Origin: Oxalobacteraceae bacterium | GTDB lineage: Bacteria > Pseudomonadota > Gammaproteobacteria > Burkholderiales > Burkholderiaceae_D | Reading direction: 5' to 3' | Length of the DNA stretch: 38,498 nt | Assembly (NCBI GenBank): GCA_027484285.1 | Contig: JAIXTG010000249.1 | Location: 1 to 38,498 of the forward strand | Shown: one piece after another, positions 21,869-29,289 of the stretch | How positions within the stretch are numbered: position 1 is the first letter of the stretch | Layout: each line of letters starts with the position of its first letter | Translations under genes and position numbers: made by a program | The notes under the pieces: generated by a model | What the model was told of the DNA's origin: nothing | What the model saw: only the letters and a program-made list of their open reading frames with translations | The model's database searches: none

Positions 21869-22124
21869 TGAAACCCTTCAACCCTTCAACTACTGTTCAC
21901 CTTCAAAAGCCGCACCAGTACTAGCTTTGTGGATAGTTGAAGTGTTGAAGGGTTTAAAGTGAAGTTGACCCAATGATTTATTCACAGCATTCCTTTGTTG
22001 CGCTCACGCGCGCGCGCACGCGAATGTCATGGAAAAAAACTGTCCATACTCTTCAACAGTCCACAACGCCAGCATCCATGCGGGTTTTCGTGTTGAACAG
22101 TTGTTGAAGGGTTGAAGGGTTTCA
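21869..22124. other. putative phage replication origin
   Basis: Near-identical 32/33-bp inverted iteron blocks at both ends, internal GTTGAAG repeats, DnaA boxes at 21978-21986 (TTATTCACA) and 21928-21936 (8/9); adjacent to primase gene. Confidence 0.6.
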
Positions 22125-24683
22125 TTCGCTGGCCTGGTCAAATACGTGCCGATACTTCTTCAATGCGTCGTCAAATAACGACGATGCCCCCTCGACCCAC
22201 TCGACCCGCGACCGATCGGCCGGCTGCTCGCCGACCAGATAGACGGTGCGCTGCTTCACGTCCGCCGCCAGCTCGTACTTGATGACGGTCCGGTGCACGA
22301 GGCCGGCGGCGACCCGGTCGATCGAGCGCCCGAACATCGTCTGGCTGACCGGGAAGCGCTCGCCGTTCAAGTGCGACCAGCGCGCATAGCCCAGGTACAG
22401 CTGCATGGCCGAGCAGCAGATGAACGGCAGCGGCAGGAAGCCGCCGGACCATTCGCGAAAGAAGCGCTCCGGCGCCGACAGCCCCAGCGAGATCAGCCGC
22501 TCGCGCGCATCGGTCTCGATCGGCTTGGTGTGCTCGGTGAAGTCACCCAGGTCGACCTCGTGTTTCAGGAAGTGGTAGAACGCGGCGATGCCGCCGGCGG
22601 CGGCTTGCTCGGCCACGGCCCGGTAGAACTCCGGCTCGCGCTTGGGCGGCGTCCACAGCACCAGGTACCGACGGTCGGACTTGTCCAATGCCAGCGGCTG
22701 CAGCTCGTTGGACAGGAACACGAAGTTCATGTGGTTCGACTCGGCGCGCTCGGGCATCCCTTTCGGGTTGATCATGATGACGTCGCCGGTGACCATCGCC
22801 TTCAGCTTGCCCTTCAACTGCCGCAGCTCCGAGCGGGTGACGACCTCGTCGGCGACGACGAAGAGCTTTTTCGAGGCCCATTCGTTGAACTGGCCCTCGA
22901 TCTGCGCGTTGCCGATCACCGCGCCGTATTCGCCGTAGATCTCGCGCATGACGGTTTCGAAGAACAGGTTCTTGCCGCTGCCCTCGTCGCCATGGATGAT
23001 GATCGACGTCTTCATCTTCGCGCCCGGATGCTGCAGCGGATACGCGAGCCAGCGCAGCACCCACGCCAGCACGTTGGCGTCGTCGTTGCAGAGGAACTTG
23101 ATCAGTTCGACGATCTGCCGGCAGTCGCCCTTTTTCGGCGTGAGCTTGAAACCATCGAACAAGTTGACCGTCGTGGCCGGGTCGCACGTCTCGGTTGGGT
23201 CAAAGACGACCTGATCCTGGTTGACCATCCGGCGTTCGGCATTGTTGAGCCAGAATTTGACCGCATCCGAGCCATACGCCAGACGCAAATGATTGACGCG
23301 GATGATGATGCGGTTGACCTCATCCCACGCGGTGTCGGTGCCGTAGATAAGCACGAAATGCGCGAGCAGGTGGTTGACCGCGTCCCAGTGCGCCTGCGTG
23401 AATTCCTTCTTCGGCCGACGCCTTTTCCCCCCGCCCCCGGCAGCCGCATCGGGCCCGCCCTCGTCGCTCCGGTCTTCTTTCGTGGAGGGGGCGGGAGTTT
23501 TGACCAGCGACAGCGGCGTGCGCGGCGGACGATCCGCCCCGGTCAACGCCTGGCGCAGCTGCTGCGCCACGGCCTCGAGACCGGCGGTCGCATGCAGGTC
23601 ATTGAAGTCGGTCAGCTTCTGGCTGCCCCGTTCCGCAAACACGGGCATTGCGACAGTGGCCGCGCCCACCAGGCGCGCCGCTTCGGTGGCTTTCGATACA
23701 CCGGCATTCTCGAAGCGCCGCGACAGCACAAGCCGGCCGCAGCGCGCATCAGCCACGATCATCGGCACGCCCTGGTCGTTGACATCTCGCCGTGCGGTGA
23801 CGGTGACGAGCTCGCCATCGGTGGCGCGCGGCCATGCGTGCTCCTGTCCGTCGACCGGCGGGGCGTCAGCCAACTGGAATTCGTCATCGAGCCACGCGGC
23901 ATAGCGCCCCTCGAGCTGGTCATCGTCGTCGGCAGCAAACACCAGGCGCAGCGATGGAAACTGCGTGCGCAGCGCACTGGCCACCGGTTTCAAGTTGCCC
24001 GCATCGAAGGCCACGACAACCGGCACCGAGCGCTCGAGCGCCATGCGAATCGTCGCGCCAGTTGCATAGCCTTCGCAGACGATCGCCACCGGTGTGGCCG
24101 CATCGACGGCGCCCAGCCGCAACGACGCGCCCGCCTTTTCGGTGCCACGGTTGAAGCGCTTGCTGCCGTCCGGCGCAATCTTTTGCAGGCCGACCAACTG
24201 CCGGCCCTCCGGCTCGTAGCGCACCATCGGCACCAGCAGCGTGCCGTCATCGGTGCAGCGCGCCGACTCGGGGTGGATGCCCTTGCGCTGCAGGTACGGG
24301 ACCGCATTGAATCGGGCCGGCTCAGCGGCTTCCCATTGGAGCTTGGCGCGGTTGGCCGCAAAACGCGCCAGCCGCGCGCGCTTGGCCTGCTCGCGCACTT
24401 CGATCTCGCGCTGGCGAGCTTCGGCGGCGGCCCGCTCTTCGGGCGAGATGCGTGCCCAGTCGACGTCGACCTTTGTCGCATTGTTCTCGGTGCCCTGCCA
24501 GCGCCCGAACGCACCACCAATGACGGACTGGCCGGACTTCAACGGAATCTCGCGCAGCACGTACCATGCCTTTTTCTGCGGCCCGAACCGGTGTACCTTG
24601 CCATCGAGGATCGGATGACCGGGCGGCGGCAATGGCAGGCCCGCGTGCTGCATCTGGTCGACCACTTGCGCCAGCGTCGTCAT
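22122..24683 (-). CDS. phage primase/helicase (Toprim-like plus DUF5906-type helicase)
   Basis: Toprim-like VAIVCEGYATGATIRMAL and VFAADDDDQ; Walker A IHGDEGSGKNLFFETV. Confidence 0.88.
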   Translation of the reverse strand: MTTLAQVVDQMQHAGLPLPPPGHPILDGKVHRFGPQKKAWYVLREIPLKSGQSVIGGAFGRWQGTENNATKVDVDWARISPEERAAAEARQREIEVREQAKRARLARFAANRAKLQWEAAEPARFNAVPYLQRKGIHPESARCTDDGTLLVPMVRYEPEGRQLVGLQKIAPDGSKRFNRGTEKAGASLRLGAVDAATPVAIVCEGYATGATIRMALERSVPVVVAFDAGNLKPVASALRTQFPSLRLVFAADDDDQLEGRYAAWLDDEFQLADAPPVDGQEHAWPRATDGELVTVTARRDVNDQGVPMIVADARCGRLVLSRRFENAGVSKATEAARLVGAATVAMPVFAERGSQKLTDFNDLHATAGLEAVAQQLRQALTGADRPPRTPLSLVKTPAPSTKEDRSDEGGPDAAAGGGGKRRRPKKEFTQAHWDAVNHLLAHFVLIYGTDTAWDEVNRIIIRVNHLRLAYGSDAVKFWLNNAERRMVNQDQVVFDPTETCDPATTVNLFDGFKLTPKKGDCRQIVELIKFLCNDDANVLAWVLRWLAYPLQHPGAKMKTSIIIHGDEGSGKNLFFETVMREIYGEYGAVIGNAQIEGQFNEWASKKLFVVADEVVTRSELRQLKGKLKAMVTGDVIMINPKGMPERAESNHMNFVFLSNELQPLALDKSDRRYLVLWTPPKREPEFYRAVAEQAAAGGIAAFYHFLKHEVDLGDFTEHTKPIETDARERLISLGLSAPERFFREWSGGFLPLPFICCSAMQLYLGYARWSHLNGERFPVSQTMFGRSIDRVAAGLVHRTVIKYELAADVKQRTVYLVGEQPADRSRVEWVEGASSLFDDALKKYRHVFDQASE

Positions 24684-25069
24684 TGCACCGCCCCGGCCAA
24701 GAGGCTGCCACTGGACTGCGGGACGACGAATGGGCCGGCCGACTGGCGCAGCAGCGGCAAGGCCACGAAATACGCCCAGCGCTTGAACATCGATGCGCGC
24801 GGCTTGCGGCTTTGACCGATCAGGTGCCAGAGCCCGGACTCGTTGATGATCTCAACAAAGGTGAGGACGCCGTCCTCGCGCACGATCAGCTCGTCGAGCT
24901 CGAACGCATCGAGGTGGCGAATGGCCCGGTCCGGGTCGGCGAAGTCGAGCACCTCGCAGACGTCGCGCGCGACGAACCACGACTGGGAATCGCGCTGGAT
25001 GGCGCGAACGGGGAAACCTTCGAAATGGAAAACAGCGGGCGCGAATGCGCCGTCGGCGGAATGCGACAT
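24680..25069 (-). CDS. BRO-N domain antirepressor-like protein
   Basis: VRAIQRDSQSWFVARDVCEVLDFADPDRAIRHLD...INESGLWHLIGQSRKP; RBS aggagcgttcc-ATG; ATGA overlap with primase. Confidence 0.82.
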   Translation of the reverse strand: MSHSADGAFAPAVFHFEGFPVRAIQRDSQSWFVARDVCEVLDFADPDRAIRHLDAFELDELIVREDGVLTFVEIINESGLWHLIGQSRKPRASMFKRWAYFVALPLLRQSAGPFVVPQSSGSLLAGAVQ

Positions 25070-25146
25070 GGAACGCTCCTGTGCGAGTCTTTGAACAAAC
25101 TCGCCGAAAGCGTTCTTACGCGCATCCGGCGAGGTGGCCGGGAGGT

Positions 25147-25163
25147 TAAGAACTCGAGCACAG
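25147..25163 (-). promoter_or_regulatory. predicted C4 RNA target segment in the antirepressor leader
   Basis: CUGUGCUCGAGUUCUUA, 16 of 17 nt complementary to the C4 segment 25271-25289. Confidence 0.6.
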
Positions 25164-25234
25164 TCGAGCGGACTTCTTTCCCTTGCGGGTCTTGTATCCG
25201 TCGCCCTCCCGGCCATAGTGAAATGTCCGGGCGC

Positions 25235-25316
25235 AAAAAAACCGCGATACTGTCGGGCGCGGGCGTGCCGCTGTGCTTCGGAGTTCTTACGCTCCATCCC
25301 TCTCGGGACACGCGGA
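25235..25316 (-). ncRNA. C4-type antisense RNA
   Basis: CCGCG...CGCGG closing stem followed by U7; CCCgagaGGG hairpin; GGAG-CGUAAGAA-CUCC hairpin with antisense segment; upstream of antirepressor. Confidence 0.65.
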
Positions 25317-25345
25317 CTATGCCCGAACAGCGGCGTGGCTGTCAA
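25316..25345 (-). promoter_or_regulatory. sigma70-like promoter for C4-antirepressor-primase
   Basis: TTGACA-18-CATAGT on the minus strand. Confidence 0.6.
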
Positions 25346-25348
25346 TGC

Positions 25349-25398
25349 AACACTTCTGTTGTTTTTTCCTTGCAAAACACAACAGAAGTGTTTAGTAT
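25349..25398 (+). promoter_or_regulatory. hicAB promoter and operator
   Basis: TTGCAA-17-TAGTAT (25370-25398) overlapped by a 14-bp perfect inverted repeat aacacttctgttgt/acaacagaagtgtt (25349-25362, 25379-25392). Confidence 0.75.
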
Positions 25399-25405
25399 CA
25401 TTTCC

Positions 25406-25585
25406 ATGAACTCCAAACAGATGAAGAAATGGCTCGAGCAGCAAGGCGCGACTTTCACGCCCGGCCGCGGCTCGCATCTGAACGTTTACTTGAACGGCCG
25501 CAAGTCGGTGCTGCCGATGCACGGCACGACGGAGCTGGGCAAAGGACTCGAAGCGGCGATCAAGCGCCAGCTCGGATTGAAATAA
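25406..25585 (+). CDS. hicA: HicA toxin
   Basis: 59 aa: MNSKQMKKWLEQQGATFTPGRGSHLNVYLNGRKSVLPMHGTTELGKGLEAAIKRQLGLK. Confidence 0.93.
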   Translation: MNSKQMKKWLEQQGATFTPGRGSHLNVYLNGRKSVLPMHGTTELGKGLEAAIKRQLGLK

Positions 25586-25591
25586 GGAGCA

Positions 25592-26014
25592 ATGATGTTT
25601 GACTATCCCGTACTGCTGACCCCGGACGACAACGGCACGATCCTGGTCACCTTCCCTGATGTCCCCGAAGCGATCACGTTTGGCGAGGACACCGACGAGG
25701 CGCTGCTGCAGGCCGTCGATGCGCTCGAATCGGCGCTGGCGTTCTATATCGCCGAGCGTCTGCCGCTGCCGGTGGCTTCCCGTCCCAAGCGCGGGCAAAA
25801 GACGGTGCGCCCCAGCGCACTCGAGTGCGCGAAATTCGGCGTCTACCAGGCGATGACCGAGCAGGGCATCAAGAAGACCGAACTGGCGCGCCGGCTCGGC
25901 TGGCACCTGCCGCAAGTCGACCGCCTCTTTGACATTCGCCACGCTTCGCGCTTTGACCAGATCGAAGCAGCCGCGCGCGCTCTCGGCAGGCATGTCGAAG
26001 TGCATATCGCCTGA
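25592..26014 (+). CDS. hicB: HicB antitoxin
   Basis: FDYPVLLTPDDNGTILVTFPDVPEAITFGEDTDEAL and C-terminal HTH. Confidence 0.93.
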   Translation: MMFDYPVLLTPDDNGTILVTFPDVPEAITFGEDTDEALLQAVDALESALAFYIAERLPLPVASRPKRGQKTVRPSALECAKFGVYQAMTEQGIKKTELARRLGWHLPQVDRLFDIRHASRFDQIEAAARALGRHVEVHIA

Positions 26015-26049
26015 AACGGACGAAGCCGATCCAGCCTGGAAGATCGTCG

Positions 26050-26256
26050 TCATTGGCGATCGCCCTCATTGCGTGTCGCTGAAAGCTCGCGCGTGAGCAA
26101 CATGTCCACGCATGCTCGCATCAATCCAACAATCTCCATCGTCGACATCTCACCGAGATGGATGACCGCTTTGGGAGGGGCCGCCGACAACGCGGCATTG
26201 TCGCTCTTGATTTCCACGGGCCCCGGGCATCTGCGCGGCGGAAATTGCCAGCTCAT
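26050..26256 (-). CDS. hypothetical small phage protein
   Basis: 68-aa ORF, 4-bp overlap with upstream gene. Confidence 0.5.
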   Translation of the reverse strand: MSWQFPPRRCPGPVEIKSDNAALSAAPPKAVIHLGEMSTMEIVGLMRACVDMLLTRELSATRNEGDRQ

Positions 26257-26681
26257 GACTTGCTCCGGTACGGCACGCGCACGCCGCCCATCAGGGACGG
26301 GTACTTGCGGTAGTCGAGCGACCCGGGGCGCATTTCCTGCACGCGTGCATAGTGCTCCGGGCGCAGCGGCTTGAACTCCGGCGCGCTGCGTGCCGGTACC
26401 GGCTTGGAGGACTTCTTCGCGGGGGCCGGTGCCAGGATCGATGCGTCGACATGCGCGCGCCCGGCCAGCGTGATCTCGATGGCGTCGTCGCCGACTTCAC
26501 GCGCCATCTTGTTGTCGACCAGCGGCTCGACGACGAGTTGCTCAAAGCGCGACGCGGAACGGAAATGCGACAGCAGCGCCGTCGACAGCTGCGCGCGCGT
26601 GGCCATGCCGCCGTTCACAATCAGCTGCTCGAGCGCTTGGTAAGCGGCACTGCCGCGGCGCGGACCGTAGTTCTTGCTCAT
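26253..26681 (-). CDS. hypothetical phage protein
   Basis: 142-aa ORF, MSKNYGPRRGSAAYQALEQLIVNGGMATRAQLSTAL. Confidence 0.6.
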   Translation of the reverse strand: MSKNYGPRRGSAAYQALEQLIVNGGMATRAQLSTALLSHFRSASRFEQLVVEPLVDNKMAREVGDDAIEITLAGRAHVDASILAPAPAKKSSKPVPARSAPEFKPLRPEHYARVQEMRPGSLDYRKYPSLMGGVRVPYRSKS

Positions 26682-26774
26682 CGTCTCGTCGTTTTTGTTT
26701 TCAAACAGAGCACCAGACCCTGCGTGCTACAGTGAAATTTCCCGTCCGTTCCATCCGCATTGAAGGAGCCCCCA

Positions 26775-27296
26775 TTGACCGACTTACTCGACCGCTCGCT
26801 TCAGCGCCAGATACTCTCGACGCTGTCGCTGATGTACCCGGGTGGCACGCGTGACTTGGCTCAGTTGCTCGCAATGGATGCCGACAGCGAACGCCGGCTG
26901 GTAGCCAACGCCAGTTACCTCGCCGAGCACGGATTGCTGGTCAGCGGCTTTCGCCGCATCAGCACGTTTGCCGGTGTCACGTTCCAGCATGCCGGCGAAA
27001 CCTCGATCACTGCAGCCGGACTCGACTTCCTGCAGGACGATGGTGGCCTGAGCGCCATTCTTGGCGTGGTCACGGTTCGCATTGATGCCGGCCAGTGGGC
27101 CGAACTGCTGGCCAGCCGTATCGAGCAAAGTGAAAACCTCACTCACGAGGAGCGCTCCTCTCTCGCTGCAGCCGTTCGTAATCTGCCAGCGAAGGCCATT
27201 GAAAAATTGTCGTCAAAGATGCTCGATTGGGCGGTGGATCACTGGCAGGACGCGCTTCCACTACTGCATAAGTGGTTAGCGCAGAGTGCTGGGTGA
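26775..27296 (+). CDS. hypothetical phage protein, winged-HTH-like
   Basis: TTG start after aaggag; LLDRSLQRQILSTLSLMYPGGTRDLAQLL. Confidence 0.6.
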   Translation: MTDLLDRSLQRQILSTLSLMYPGGTRDLAQLLAMDADSERRLVANASYLAEHGLLVSGFRRISTFAGVTFQHAGETSITAAGLDFLQDDGGLSAILGVVTVRIDAGQWAELLASRIEQSENLTHEERSSLAAAVRNLPAKAIEKLSSKMLDWAVDHWQDALPLLHKWLAQSAG

Positions 27297-27474
27297 GCCG
27301 CTTTTCGAGCCGCACGTAGCCGACCACTGGATGGGCCTCACTCTCATGCTTGCCATCGGCGACGATCGCCACCCATAACTCGTCCTCGAAACAGGGCAGA
27401 TCGACCATCAATGCCATCGCCGGCCGATTGAGCATCAGCGCCTTGGCGGGTACGCTCAATGGGAAATAAATCAT
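27139..27474 (-). CDS. hypothetical phage protein
   Basis: 111-aa ORF, 4-bp overlap with CII-like gene; 3' end overlaps the convergent 26775-27296 gene. Confidence 0.5.
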   Translation of the reverse strand: MIYFPLSVPAKALMLNRPAMALMVDLPCFEDELWVAIVADGKHESEAHPVVGYVRLEKRLTQHSALTTYAVVEARPASDPPPNRASLTTIFQWPSLADYERLQRERSAPRE

Positions 27475-27983
27475 GGCCGCACCTTCTGCGCAGCAGCCGG
27501 ACGGTTGACCTGCGCGCGCACCCGCTCGCGCAGCGCGCCAATGGCGCCCAGTGCCTGCTGAATCTCGCGCTCGATGCCATCGAGTTCGGCCAGCGAGATG
27601 CCGCCATCGTCAGCCAGCGCCGACGCAATGGCGCCGGTCACGTCACCCAGTTCCTGCATCGCCTTGCACACCGATTGCGTCAGGTCCGCATCCGACAGAT
27701 GCGCCAGCGCCGGGAATGCAAACGCCACCAGGCTGTGACGCTGGCACATCGCCTCGATCGGCAAGGTCGCGTTGGGCACGCCGGCGGCTGCACACAGCTC
27801 GACGATCTCGGAAACCTCCTCGAACGACGGGTAATGGCTGTCGACGCCCGGGCGCAGCTTGTTGTAGAGGACATTGGCCGTCTTTCCCATGCGCTGCGCG
27901 AGTGCCTCGATGCCGCCCGGGTAAGCGCGCGCGACCTTGTAGAGCGCGTCGTGCTGATTGGTGTCGGAATAGCGAAGTGTCAT
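27471..27983 (-). CDS. CII-like phage regulatory protein
   Basis: DALYKVARAYPGGIEALAQRMGKTANVLYNKLRPGVDSHYPSFEEVSEIVELC. Confidence 0.8.
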   Translation of the reverse strand: MTLRYSDTNQHDALYKVARAYPGGIEALAQRMGKTANVLYNKLRPGVDSHYPSFEEVSEIVELCAAAGVPNATLPIEAMCQRHSLVAFAFPALAHLSDADLTQSVCKAMQELGDVTGAIASALADDGGISLAELDGIEREIQQALGAIGALRERVRAQVNRPAAAQKVRP

Positions 27984-28294: not shown

Positions 28295-28498
28295 TCACGC
28301 CGCCACGCCCGCCGAGCTCGTCGACGGCGCATCGGCTGGGTTGGCAAACAACTCCGGGTGCATCAGCTTCAACGTCTGCAGACGGGCCTTCGGAATGCCC
28401 TCGCGCCGCCAGCCGGAGACGGAAGCCGGCGCGATCTCGAACAGCTGCGCAACCTTGTTGGTGCCGCCTAGGCGATCGATGAGGTGATTGGCGTCCAT
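28295..28498 (-). CDS. Cro-like (YdaS-type HTH) regulator
   Basis: MDANHLIDRLGGTNKVAQLFEIAPASVSGWRREGIPKARLQTLKLMHPELF; divergent from repressor. Confidence 0.85.
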   Translation of the reverse strand: MDANHLIDRLGGTNKVAQLFEIAPASVSGWRREGIPKARLQTLKLMHPELFANPADAPSTSSAGVAA

Positions 28499-28529: not shown

Positions 28530-28595
28530 GTTAGGTGCAGCTAATAGCCCTGTCAATAGGGATACCTTATTATCAATCCATTAGGATAGCCTAAT
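28530..28595. promoter_or_regulatory. operator cluster between Cro-like gene and repressor (three sites)
   Basis: GTTAGGTGCAGCTAAT 28530-28545, AATAGGGATACCTTAT 28555-28570, ATTAGGATAGCCTAAT 28580-28595; centres exactly 25 bp apart; minus-strand TTGACA-17-TAACAT. Confidence 0.85.
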
Positions 28596-29289
28596 GAATC
28601 TTGCTGAACGTTTACGAAAAGCGCTGACCGAGCGCCCGGAGATTACGCAGGCCGACTTGGCCCGCGCGTGCGCCATTAAGCCGCCGTCCGTGTCTGATTG
28701 GCTCAACGGAAAGACCAAGCGGCTATCCGGCTCCAACCTGCTGGCTGCGGCGCGCTTGCTGGGCGTGCGACCGGACTGGCTGGCAACGGGCAAAGGTCAG
28801 ATGCGCGCCGACGCAGCGTCGGCCGGCGGTGCTGACGCAACGCCGTCCGAAGATGACTTTGACCTGGTGCCGCAGCTGGATCTAAGCGCGGCCTGTGGGG
28901 ATGGAAAGTTTGCCGAGCATGTCGTCGTGCGCGGCGGGCTGGCGTTCAAGAAGACCTTCATGCGCCAGTTCGGCATTTCCGAGGCGACCTCGCGCATCAT
29001 CTACGCGCAAGGCACCAGCATGGAGCCGACCATCGGCGATGGGCGCGTGGTGCTGATCAACTTATCGGAGACGGCGCCGATCGATGGCAAGGTGTTCCTG
29101 ATTTGCGACCAGGACGGCGCGTTGCTTTTGAAACGCCTGGTGCGCGAGTACGACCCGGCCATGCAGGCAACGGTCTGGAAGACTCGCTCCGACAACCCGG
29201 ACAAGCGGCAGTACCCGGACAAGATCCTGCCGGATGATCCGCGCGTGCAGATCGTGGGACGTGCGATCTGGCATGACGGATTGCTTTAA
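28594..29289 (+). CDS. CI/LexA-like repressor (XRE HTH + S24 peptidase)
   Basis: TQADLARACAIKPPSVSDWLNGKTKRLSG; AQGTSMEPTIGDGRVVLIN; DGKVFLICDQDG. Confidence 0.93.
   Translation: MNLAERLRKALTERPEITQADLARACAIKPPSVSDWLNGKTKRLSGSNLLAAARLLGVRPDWLATGKGQMRADAASAGGADATPSEDDFDLVPQLDLSAACGDGKFAEHVVVRGGLAFKKTFMRQFGISEATSRIIYAQGTSMEPTIGDGRVVLINLSETAPIDGKVFLICDQDGALLLKRLVREYDPAMQATVWKTRSDNPDKRQYPDKILPDDPRVQIVGRAIWHDGLL

What the first reader, a model, noticed from the sequence alone, without database searches (positions are those of the whole stretch)
24680..25345. C4-type antisense RNA controlling an antirepressor-primase operon in a CI-repressor phage
Minus strand, in order: TTGACA-18-CATAGT promoter; an ~82-nt RNA with closing stem CCGCG/CGCGG followed by U7, a CCCgagaGGG hairpin and a GGAG-CGUAAGAA-CUCC hairpin; then ~70 nt downstream a segment CUGUGCU-C-GAGUUCUUA that pairs with the RNA's UAAGAACUC-CGA-AGCACAG (9+7 bp); then a BRO-N antirepressor overlapping the primase/helicase gene by ATGA. 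This matches the P1/P7 c4-icd-ant immunity logic and recalls the P4 CI RNA controlling the alpha primase. The unusual point is that it fuses antirepressor and primase control in a phage that also has a protein CI/Cro switch with operators, suggesting two immunity circuits.
Basis: partly seen in the sequence, partly recalled or inferred. Interest (0 to 1): 0.82.

Follow-up and report, generated by a model that had tools for sequence, protein, structure and literature searches.

The report
Phage antisense RNA guarding an antirepressor
A prophage carries a small folded RNA (database family sRNA-Xcc1) whose loops match its own leader and the ribosome-binding site of an antirepressor gene, so it very probably keeps the virus dormant the way phage P1's C4 RNA does; the same module turns up in many phages and also in front of bacterial toxin genes.

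Summary
The sequence observations hold: the promoter, the 9+7 bp complementarity, the U7 tract, BRO-N and the ATGA overlap are all there. The P1 c4-icd-ant logic is right, but the roles were read the wrong way round. Rfam C4 does not hit. It carries a1/b1, like P1's a1b1 region and Salmonella IsrK. In 21 chromosomal loci the same test gives z 5.5-8.5. In 19 Xanthomonadales-type leaders, b1 and b' match at 7-8 nt in every case, against 5% when swapped. No paper I could search links sRNA-Xcc1 to C4-type control. So this is a C4-type immunity switch built from a different RNA family, which also precedes symE toxin genes.

The parts
25316..25345 (-). sigma70-type promoter TTGACA-18-CATAGT of the leader/antirepressor operon
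   Evidence: a TTGACA-like promoter precedes the leader in other phages (L103, L161)
25298..25307 (-). small hairpin CCC-GAGA-GGG in the short leader RNA
   Evidence: same in the Bordetella phage L182; a different-sequence hairpin at this place in Smp131 L183
25280..25295 (-). hairpin GGAG-CGUAAGAA-CUCC presenting a1 in its loop
   Evidence: identical in L182 and L183; GGAGCGTxxxAACTCC in Xanthomonas loci
25283..25290 (-). a1: GTAAGAAC, pairs with a' of the sRNA-Xcc1 element (within the 9 bp UAAGAACUC/GAGUUCUUA)
25271..25277 (-). b1: AGCACAG, pairs with b' (CUGUGCU)
25235..25262 (-). intrinsic terminator CCGCG-11-CGCGG-T7 ending the short (about 75 nt) isrK/a1b1-like leader RNA
   Evidence: conserved in L182, L183 and at this position in P1; termination itself not tested, and the tool's terminator scan (loop 3-8) does not list it because the loop is 11 nt
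25128..25214 (-). sRNA-Xcc1 (RF02221) element: the C4-like antisense RNA
   Evidence: 66.1 bits, cut-off 53, E 5.8e-10; closing helix covaries, 98% standard pairs against 33-53% in slid registers
25177..25197 (-). conserved core AUACAA-ACCCG-AAGGG-AA of the element
25157..25163 (-). b': CUGUGCU, loop of the second hairpin
   Evidence: covaries with b1 and b2 across phages and with b1 across 19 Xanthomonadales-type leaders
25147..25155 (-). a': GAGUUCUUA, junction strand before the closing helix
   Evidence: covaries with a1 and a2
25112..25119 (-). a2: GTAAGAAC, target in the antirepressor leader (7 bp with a')
25079..25084 (-). b2: GCACAG, target overlapping the Shine-Dalgarno (6 bp with b')
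25076..25080 (-). Shine-Dalgarno AGGAG of the antirepressor
24680..25069 (-). BRO-N domain antirepressor, 129 aa
   Evidence: PF02498 E 3.1e-16; PHROG anti-repressor Ant E 5.7e-22
22122..24683 (-). DNA primase/helicase (Toprim, DUF5906), ATGA overlap with BRO-N
   Evidence: phrog_2249 DNA primase E 9e-141
25349..25392 (.). 14-bp inverted repeat between hicA and the operon promoter, 3 nt from its -35; candidate HicB operator
   Evidence: sequence; function inferred

Best explanation
A P1-c4-type antisense immunity switch in which the antisense RNA belongs to Rfam family sRNA-Xcc1. Transcription from the TTGACA promoter makes mostly a terminated leader of about 75 nt carrying a1 and b1. Read-through transcripts continue into the folded sRNA-Xcc1 element, the antirepressor (BRO-N) and the primase. 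The element, released as an RNA of about 80-90 nt or acting in cis, exposes b' (second hairpin loop) and a' (junction strand). These pair with a2 and with b2, which overlaps the Shine-Dalgarno of BRO-N. That blocks BRO-N translation and, through the ATGA overlap, lowers primase translation, keeping the CI lysogen quiet. The short leader carries better matches (a1b1: 9+7 bp) than the RBS (7+6 bp), so it most likely acts as a sponge that titrates the antisense RNA and frees BRO-N translation when leader transcription rises. Shown computationally: parts, positions, structure, four-way covariation. Inferred: repression, RNA release, the sponge role, coupling to primase, inactivation of CI by BRO-N.
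For: RF02221 hit at 66.1 bits. The closing helix covaries: 98% standard pairs, 2-6 pair types per position. All four pairings beat 5000 partner-swapped permutations in 38 non-redundant, mostly phage, elements (z 9.4, 9.8, 11.4, 11.0) and independently in 21 chromosomal loci (z 5.5-8.5). The 3' end of b2 lies 6-12 nt before the start codon in most elements. Near-identical Xanthomonadales-type leaders differ in b1 and b' together: 19 of 19 match at 7-8 nt, against 4.7% swapped. P1 has the same annotated layout a1-b1-c4-a2-b2-icd, with the icd/ant overlap, and its Rfam C4 and c4-a1b1 matches fall where expected. Genes next to the element in phages are antirepressor families KilA-N, Bro-N, AntA, pRha, P22_AR, ORF6N. 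sRNA-Xcc1 is a real RNA, 88 nt by end mapping and about 100 nt on Northern blots, in Xanthomonas (PMC2996969). The terminated IsrK leader of Gifsy-1 activates antirepressor translation 140-fold in trans (PMC4825925), as the sponge model expects.
Against: No expression data for this prophage. In the window alone the split downstream match (7 + 6 bp, about 28 nt apart) is not better than shuffles by single-duplex energy (259 of 1000); the case for a2/b2 rests on position and family covariation. In Xanthomonas chromosomal copies the a2/b2 sites look lost while a1b1 still covaries, so RBS pairing is not the family's only constraint. The IsrK paper explains activation by refolding of the mRNA rather than by sponging a C4 RNA. 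Rfam C4 itself does not match.
Confidence: 0.82

Rival explanations
1. One reading: the upstream 82-nt RNA is the C4-like antisense RNA and 25163-25147 is merely its mRNA target.
For: The upstream stretch has its own promoter and terminator and the 9+7 bp pairing is real.
Against: The conserved, covarying fold and the Rfam family lie in the supposed target. The upstream RNA holds the same-sense sequences as the RBS region, so it cannot pair with the RBS. In P1 this position is the a1b1 target, not c4.
Confidence: 0.07
2. A purely cis-acting leader: the Xcc1 fold and a2/b2 pair within one mRNA (pseudoknot), with a1b1 as the competing partner; no free antisense RNA.
For: All partners are within 220 nt of one transcript, and pairing by proximity would suit matches of 6-8 bp. 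The IsrK paper describes competing mRNA folds (PMC4825925).
Against: sRNA-Xcc1 accumulates as a discrete RNA of about 100 nt in Xanthomonas (PMC2996969), seven copies are expressed in Xylella (PMC12189769), and P1 C4 acts in trans (established for P1/P7).
Confidence: 0.2
3. sRNA-Xcc1 is a trans-acting sRNA with host virulence or metabolic targets, as the literature treats it, and its position upstream of antirepressors is incidental.
For: Described as trans-acting, HrpG/HrpX-controlled in Xanthomonas (Chen 2011, cited in PMC12189769 and PMC12444791); predicted host targets in Xylella.
Against: Loop sequences change together with the neighbouring leader and RBS in phages and chromosomes, which fixed host targets would not produce.
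Confidence: 0.04
4. The stretch is coding: a 457-aa minus-strand ORF (26053-24680) runs through the region and BRO-N is only its end.
For: The frame is open and its ATG overlaps the stop of the preceding ORF.
Against: It runs antisense to hicA/hicB (PF07927, PF15919), its upstream part looks like non-coding translation, the RNA family lies inside it, and a good SD and ATG sit at 25080 and 25069.
Confidence: 0.02

Closest known systems
C4 antisense RNA of phages P1/P7 (RF01695) with the c4-a1b1 leader (RF03163)
   Same: Promoter, a1, b1, folded RNA with b' in a hairpin loop and a' in the junction, a2, b2 at the RBS, first ORF joined to the second by ATGA; separate CI-type repressor in the same phage.
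   Different: Different RNA family: neither Rfam model crosses over; first hairpin has an AUACAA internal-loop core; the controlled pair is BRO-N then primase instead of icd then ant.
sRNA-Xcc1 (RF02221), Xanthomonas integron sRNA
   Same: Direct member by model score; same leader layout a1b1-terminator-element in Xanthomonas hortorum in front of a SymE toxin gene.
   Different: Published as a trans-acting sRNA; in the papers found it is not linked to antirepressors or C4-type control.
IsrK (RF01394) of Salmonella Gifsy-1
   Same: Short terminated leader RNA upstream of a small ORF and an antirepressor, with read-through mRNA; activates antirepressor translation in trans (PMC4825925).
   Different: No isrK model match in the window; the window leader is different in sequence and precedes an Xcc1, not a C4, element.
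P4 CI RNA controlling the alpha primase operon
   Same: A small leader-derived antisense RNA governs an operon that includes a phage primase (from knowledge of P4).
   Different: P4 CI acts by premature transcription termination within its leader; no P4-type element was recognised here by Rfam.

Membership tests
sRNA-Xcc1 (RF02221) | Match over the curated model cut-off | tested here: met
   66.1 bits, cut-off 53, full length 1-87
sRNA-Xcc1 (RF02221) | Expressed RNA of about 88 nt | not testable with these tools
   Shown only in Xanthomonas (PMC2996969)
C4 antisense RNA (RF01695) | Match to the C4 covariance model | tested here: not met
   No C4 match at gathering or at E up to 5; same library finds C4 in P1 at 68.8 bits
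C4 antisense RNA (RF01695) | a'/b' complementary to a2/b2 at the RBS of the first ORF of an antirepressor operon | tested here: met
C4 antisense RNA (RF01695) | Second target copy a1/b1 between promoter and RNA | tested here: met
C4 antisense RNA (RF01695) | Represses antirepressor synthesis; processed from the same transcript | not testable with these tools
   Needs reporter and Northern experiments
c4-a1b1 (RF03163) | Match to the model in the leader | tested here: not met
   Absent in window, present in P1
isrK (RF01394) | Match to the model in the leader | tested here: not met
   Absent in window; present in phages L103 and L161 upstream of C4
P4 CI RNA | Pairing with seqA/seqC causes premature termination | not tested
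   -

The most novel reading that the evidence does not exclude
The whole sRNA-Xcc1 family, known as an integron-borne virulence-linked sRNA, is a second, widespread class of C4-type antisense switch. It controls whatever gene follows it (antirepressors in phages, SymE toxins and other small proteins in chromosomes and integrons), with hypervariable a/b loops that set specificity groups, comparable to heteroimmunity.
Probability: 0.7. Interest if true: 0.75.

Novelty: new variant of a known kind. Interest (0 to 1): 0.63.

Why it matters
It gives a testable cis-encoded target to an RNA family treated for 15 years as a trans-acting virulence sRNA, ties integron sRNA-Xcc1/symE cassettes to phage immunity RNA, and predicts for many temperate phages and chromosomal loci which loop bases set the specificity of the switch. 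Genome annotators who see sRNA-Xcc1 in a prophage could then look for an antirepressor directly downstream.

Tried and rejected
Rfam C4, c4-a1b1 and isrK in the window: no hit. The 82-nt closed fold: not supported. A covariance model from a plain MAFFT alignment (R1) recovered only 7 pairs because the closing helix misaligned; it was not used, and closing-helix covariation was counted on Rfam coordinates instead. RNase-P-like RCC motif after the closing helix: not general, so RNase P processing as in P1 C4 is left open. Primase relatives in viral contigs: none by pattern; no primase like the window's near any Xcc1 element in 119 loci; the best relative in genomes of kin (54%, G320) ends at a contig edge. 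Plasmid search with a symE-type element: none. The 457-aa ORF: rejected as spurious. First b' cut was too narrow and started one base late; corrected.

Full report
What is in the sequence. On the minus strand the promoter TTGACA-18-CATAGT (25345-25316) is the only sigma70-like site in 24950-25650. Downstream come a small hairpin (25307-25298), a hairpin GGAG-CGUAAGAA-CUCC (25295-25280) and the segment UAAGAACUC-CGA-AGCACAG (25289-25271). A duplex this stable is reached by 1 of 1000 dinucleotide shuffles of the upstream region. The proposed 82-nt closed fold is not supported: fold z -0.77. An alignment with Bordetella phage vB_BaM-IFTN1 and Stenotrophomonas phage Smp131 shows that only a short terminator, CCGC(G)...(C)GCGG-T run, is conserved.

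What the target really is. Rfam gives no C4 match but a full-length match to RF02221 sRNA-Xcc1 at 25214-25128 (66.1 bits, cut-off 53). The region folds with z -5.0. Over 29 family members the closing helix is 98% paired, with 2-6 standard pair types per position, against 33-53% in slid registers.

The missed site. GTAAGAAC occurs again at 25119-25112 and GCACAG at 25084-25079, overlapping the Shine-Dalgarno AGGAG (25080-25076) of the BRO-N gene that starts at 25069. The element therefore has two partner pairs: a1/b1 upstream and a2/b2 downstream. Because a1b1 and a2b2 are same-sense copies, the upstream RNA cannot be antisense to the RBS; the Xcc1 element can.

Is it more than chance? In 38 non-redundant elements with a well-defined closing helix (one from a bacterial genome, the rest phage, window included), the longest exact complements exceed those of partner-swapped elements for a'-a2 (z 9.4), b'-b2 (9.8), a'-a1 (11.4) and b'-b1 (11.0), with 0 of 5000 permutations each. 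The 3' end of b2 lies 6-12 nt before the ATG in most of them. An independent set of 21 dissimilar chromosomal loci gives z 5.5, 7.5, 8.1 and 8.5. In 19 Xanthomonadales-type leaders that are nearly identical elsewhere, b1 and b' differ from locus to locus yet always match over 7-8 nt, against 4.7% of swapped pairs. In the window taken alone, the split a2/b2 match is not significant by duplex energy (259 of 1000), so that part leans on position and on the family.

Comparison with P1. The P1 record annotates a1, b1, c4, a2, b2, then icd overlapping ant1, with a C1 operator beside the promoter. The window has the same order and similar spacing. P1 behaves as a positive control in the shuffle test (3 and 6 of 1000) and in Rfam (C4 68.8 bits, c4-a1b1 51 bits). 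Phages L103 and L161 carry isrK directly before C4 as well as an sRNA-Xcc1 element. C4 and Xcc1 share the layout: closing helix, hairpin, hairpin with b' in the loop, a' junction, closing helix. Rfam does not join them, and I cannot say whether this is homology or convergence.

Mechanism. Genes next to the element in phages belong to antirepressor families KilA-N, P22_AR, AntA, Bro-N, pRha and ORF6N, or are short ORFs followed by them. I therefore take the element as an antisense repressor of BRO-N translation. By the ATGA overlap, the primase is probably translated less as well; this is inference, and no other Xcc1 element was found next to such a primase. For the short leader the best guide is IsrK: a terminated leader whose RNA in trans raises antirepressor translation 140-fold by pairing with the read-through mRNA (PMC4825925). 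A leader that pairs better with the element (9+7 bp) than the RBS does (7+6 bp) fits a sponge. P1's own two circuits (C1 plus c4-ant) show that a CI/Cro switch (S24 repressor 28594-29289; Cro-like 28295-28498, sub-threshold P22_Cro hit) beside such a module is normal.

Beyond phages. Elements in bacterial genomes precede SymE toxins (L194 X. hortorum, PF08845 E 2.6e-20; L005 E 3.5e-10) and other small proteins. This agrees with the report that the most widespread Xanthomonas integron cassette holds sRNA-Xcc1 upstream of symE (PMC12444791). Papers on sRNA-Xcc1 treat it as a trans-acting sRNA (PMC2996969, PMC12189769); a full-text search found none that ties it to C4-type control. The library holds open-access papers only, so an earlier mention elsewhere is possible.

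Verdict. It is a new variant of a known kind; the main gain is the reassignment of the sRNA-Xcc1 family.

Noticed in passing
window 25349-26014: hicA (25409-25585, +) and hicB with an HTH (25592-26014, +) lie divergent to the operon; a 14-bp inverted repeat (25392-25379 / 25362-25349) sits 3 nt from the operon's -35, like the C1 operator beside the P1 c4 promoter. HicB may control both.
   Followed up: partly
window 25409-27983: In Halomonas phage vB_HmeY_H4907 (L334) the primase directly follows the Cro/CII-type operon; in the window hicAB, the Xcc1 element and BRO-N stand between them, as if inserted as a cassette.
   Followed up: partly
L183 3912-4484 (Stenotrophomonas phage Smp131): The annotated anti-repressor CDS runs through the sRNA-Xcc1 element; its start is probably too far upstream.
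   Followed up: no
L103 2422-2834 and 3565-3753: One phage contig carries two isrK-C4 pairs and an sRNA-Xcc1 module close together.
   Followed up: no
L131, L150, L178, L332: Two sRNA-Xcc1 elements within about 0.2-1.9 kb of each other with different loop sequences, reminiscent of the five tandem copies reported in Xylella (PMC12189769).
   Followed up: partly
L194, L197, L220, L238, L250, L255, L269, L270 (Xanthomonas): Leader a1b1 and element loops covary perfectly but a2/b2 are not kept; most downstream ORFs there encode small proteins of unknown function.
   Followed up: partly
L019 and L030 (G214): sRNA-Xcc1-like elements without the AUACAA core but with intact a1/b1 complements, a possible further variant of the family.
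   Followed up: no
L088 2202-2349: Three CRISPR-DR4 repeat matches in a phage contig.
   Followed up: no
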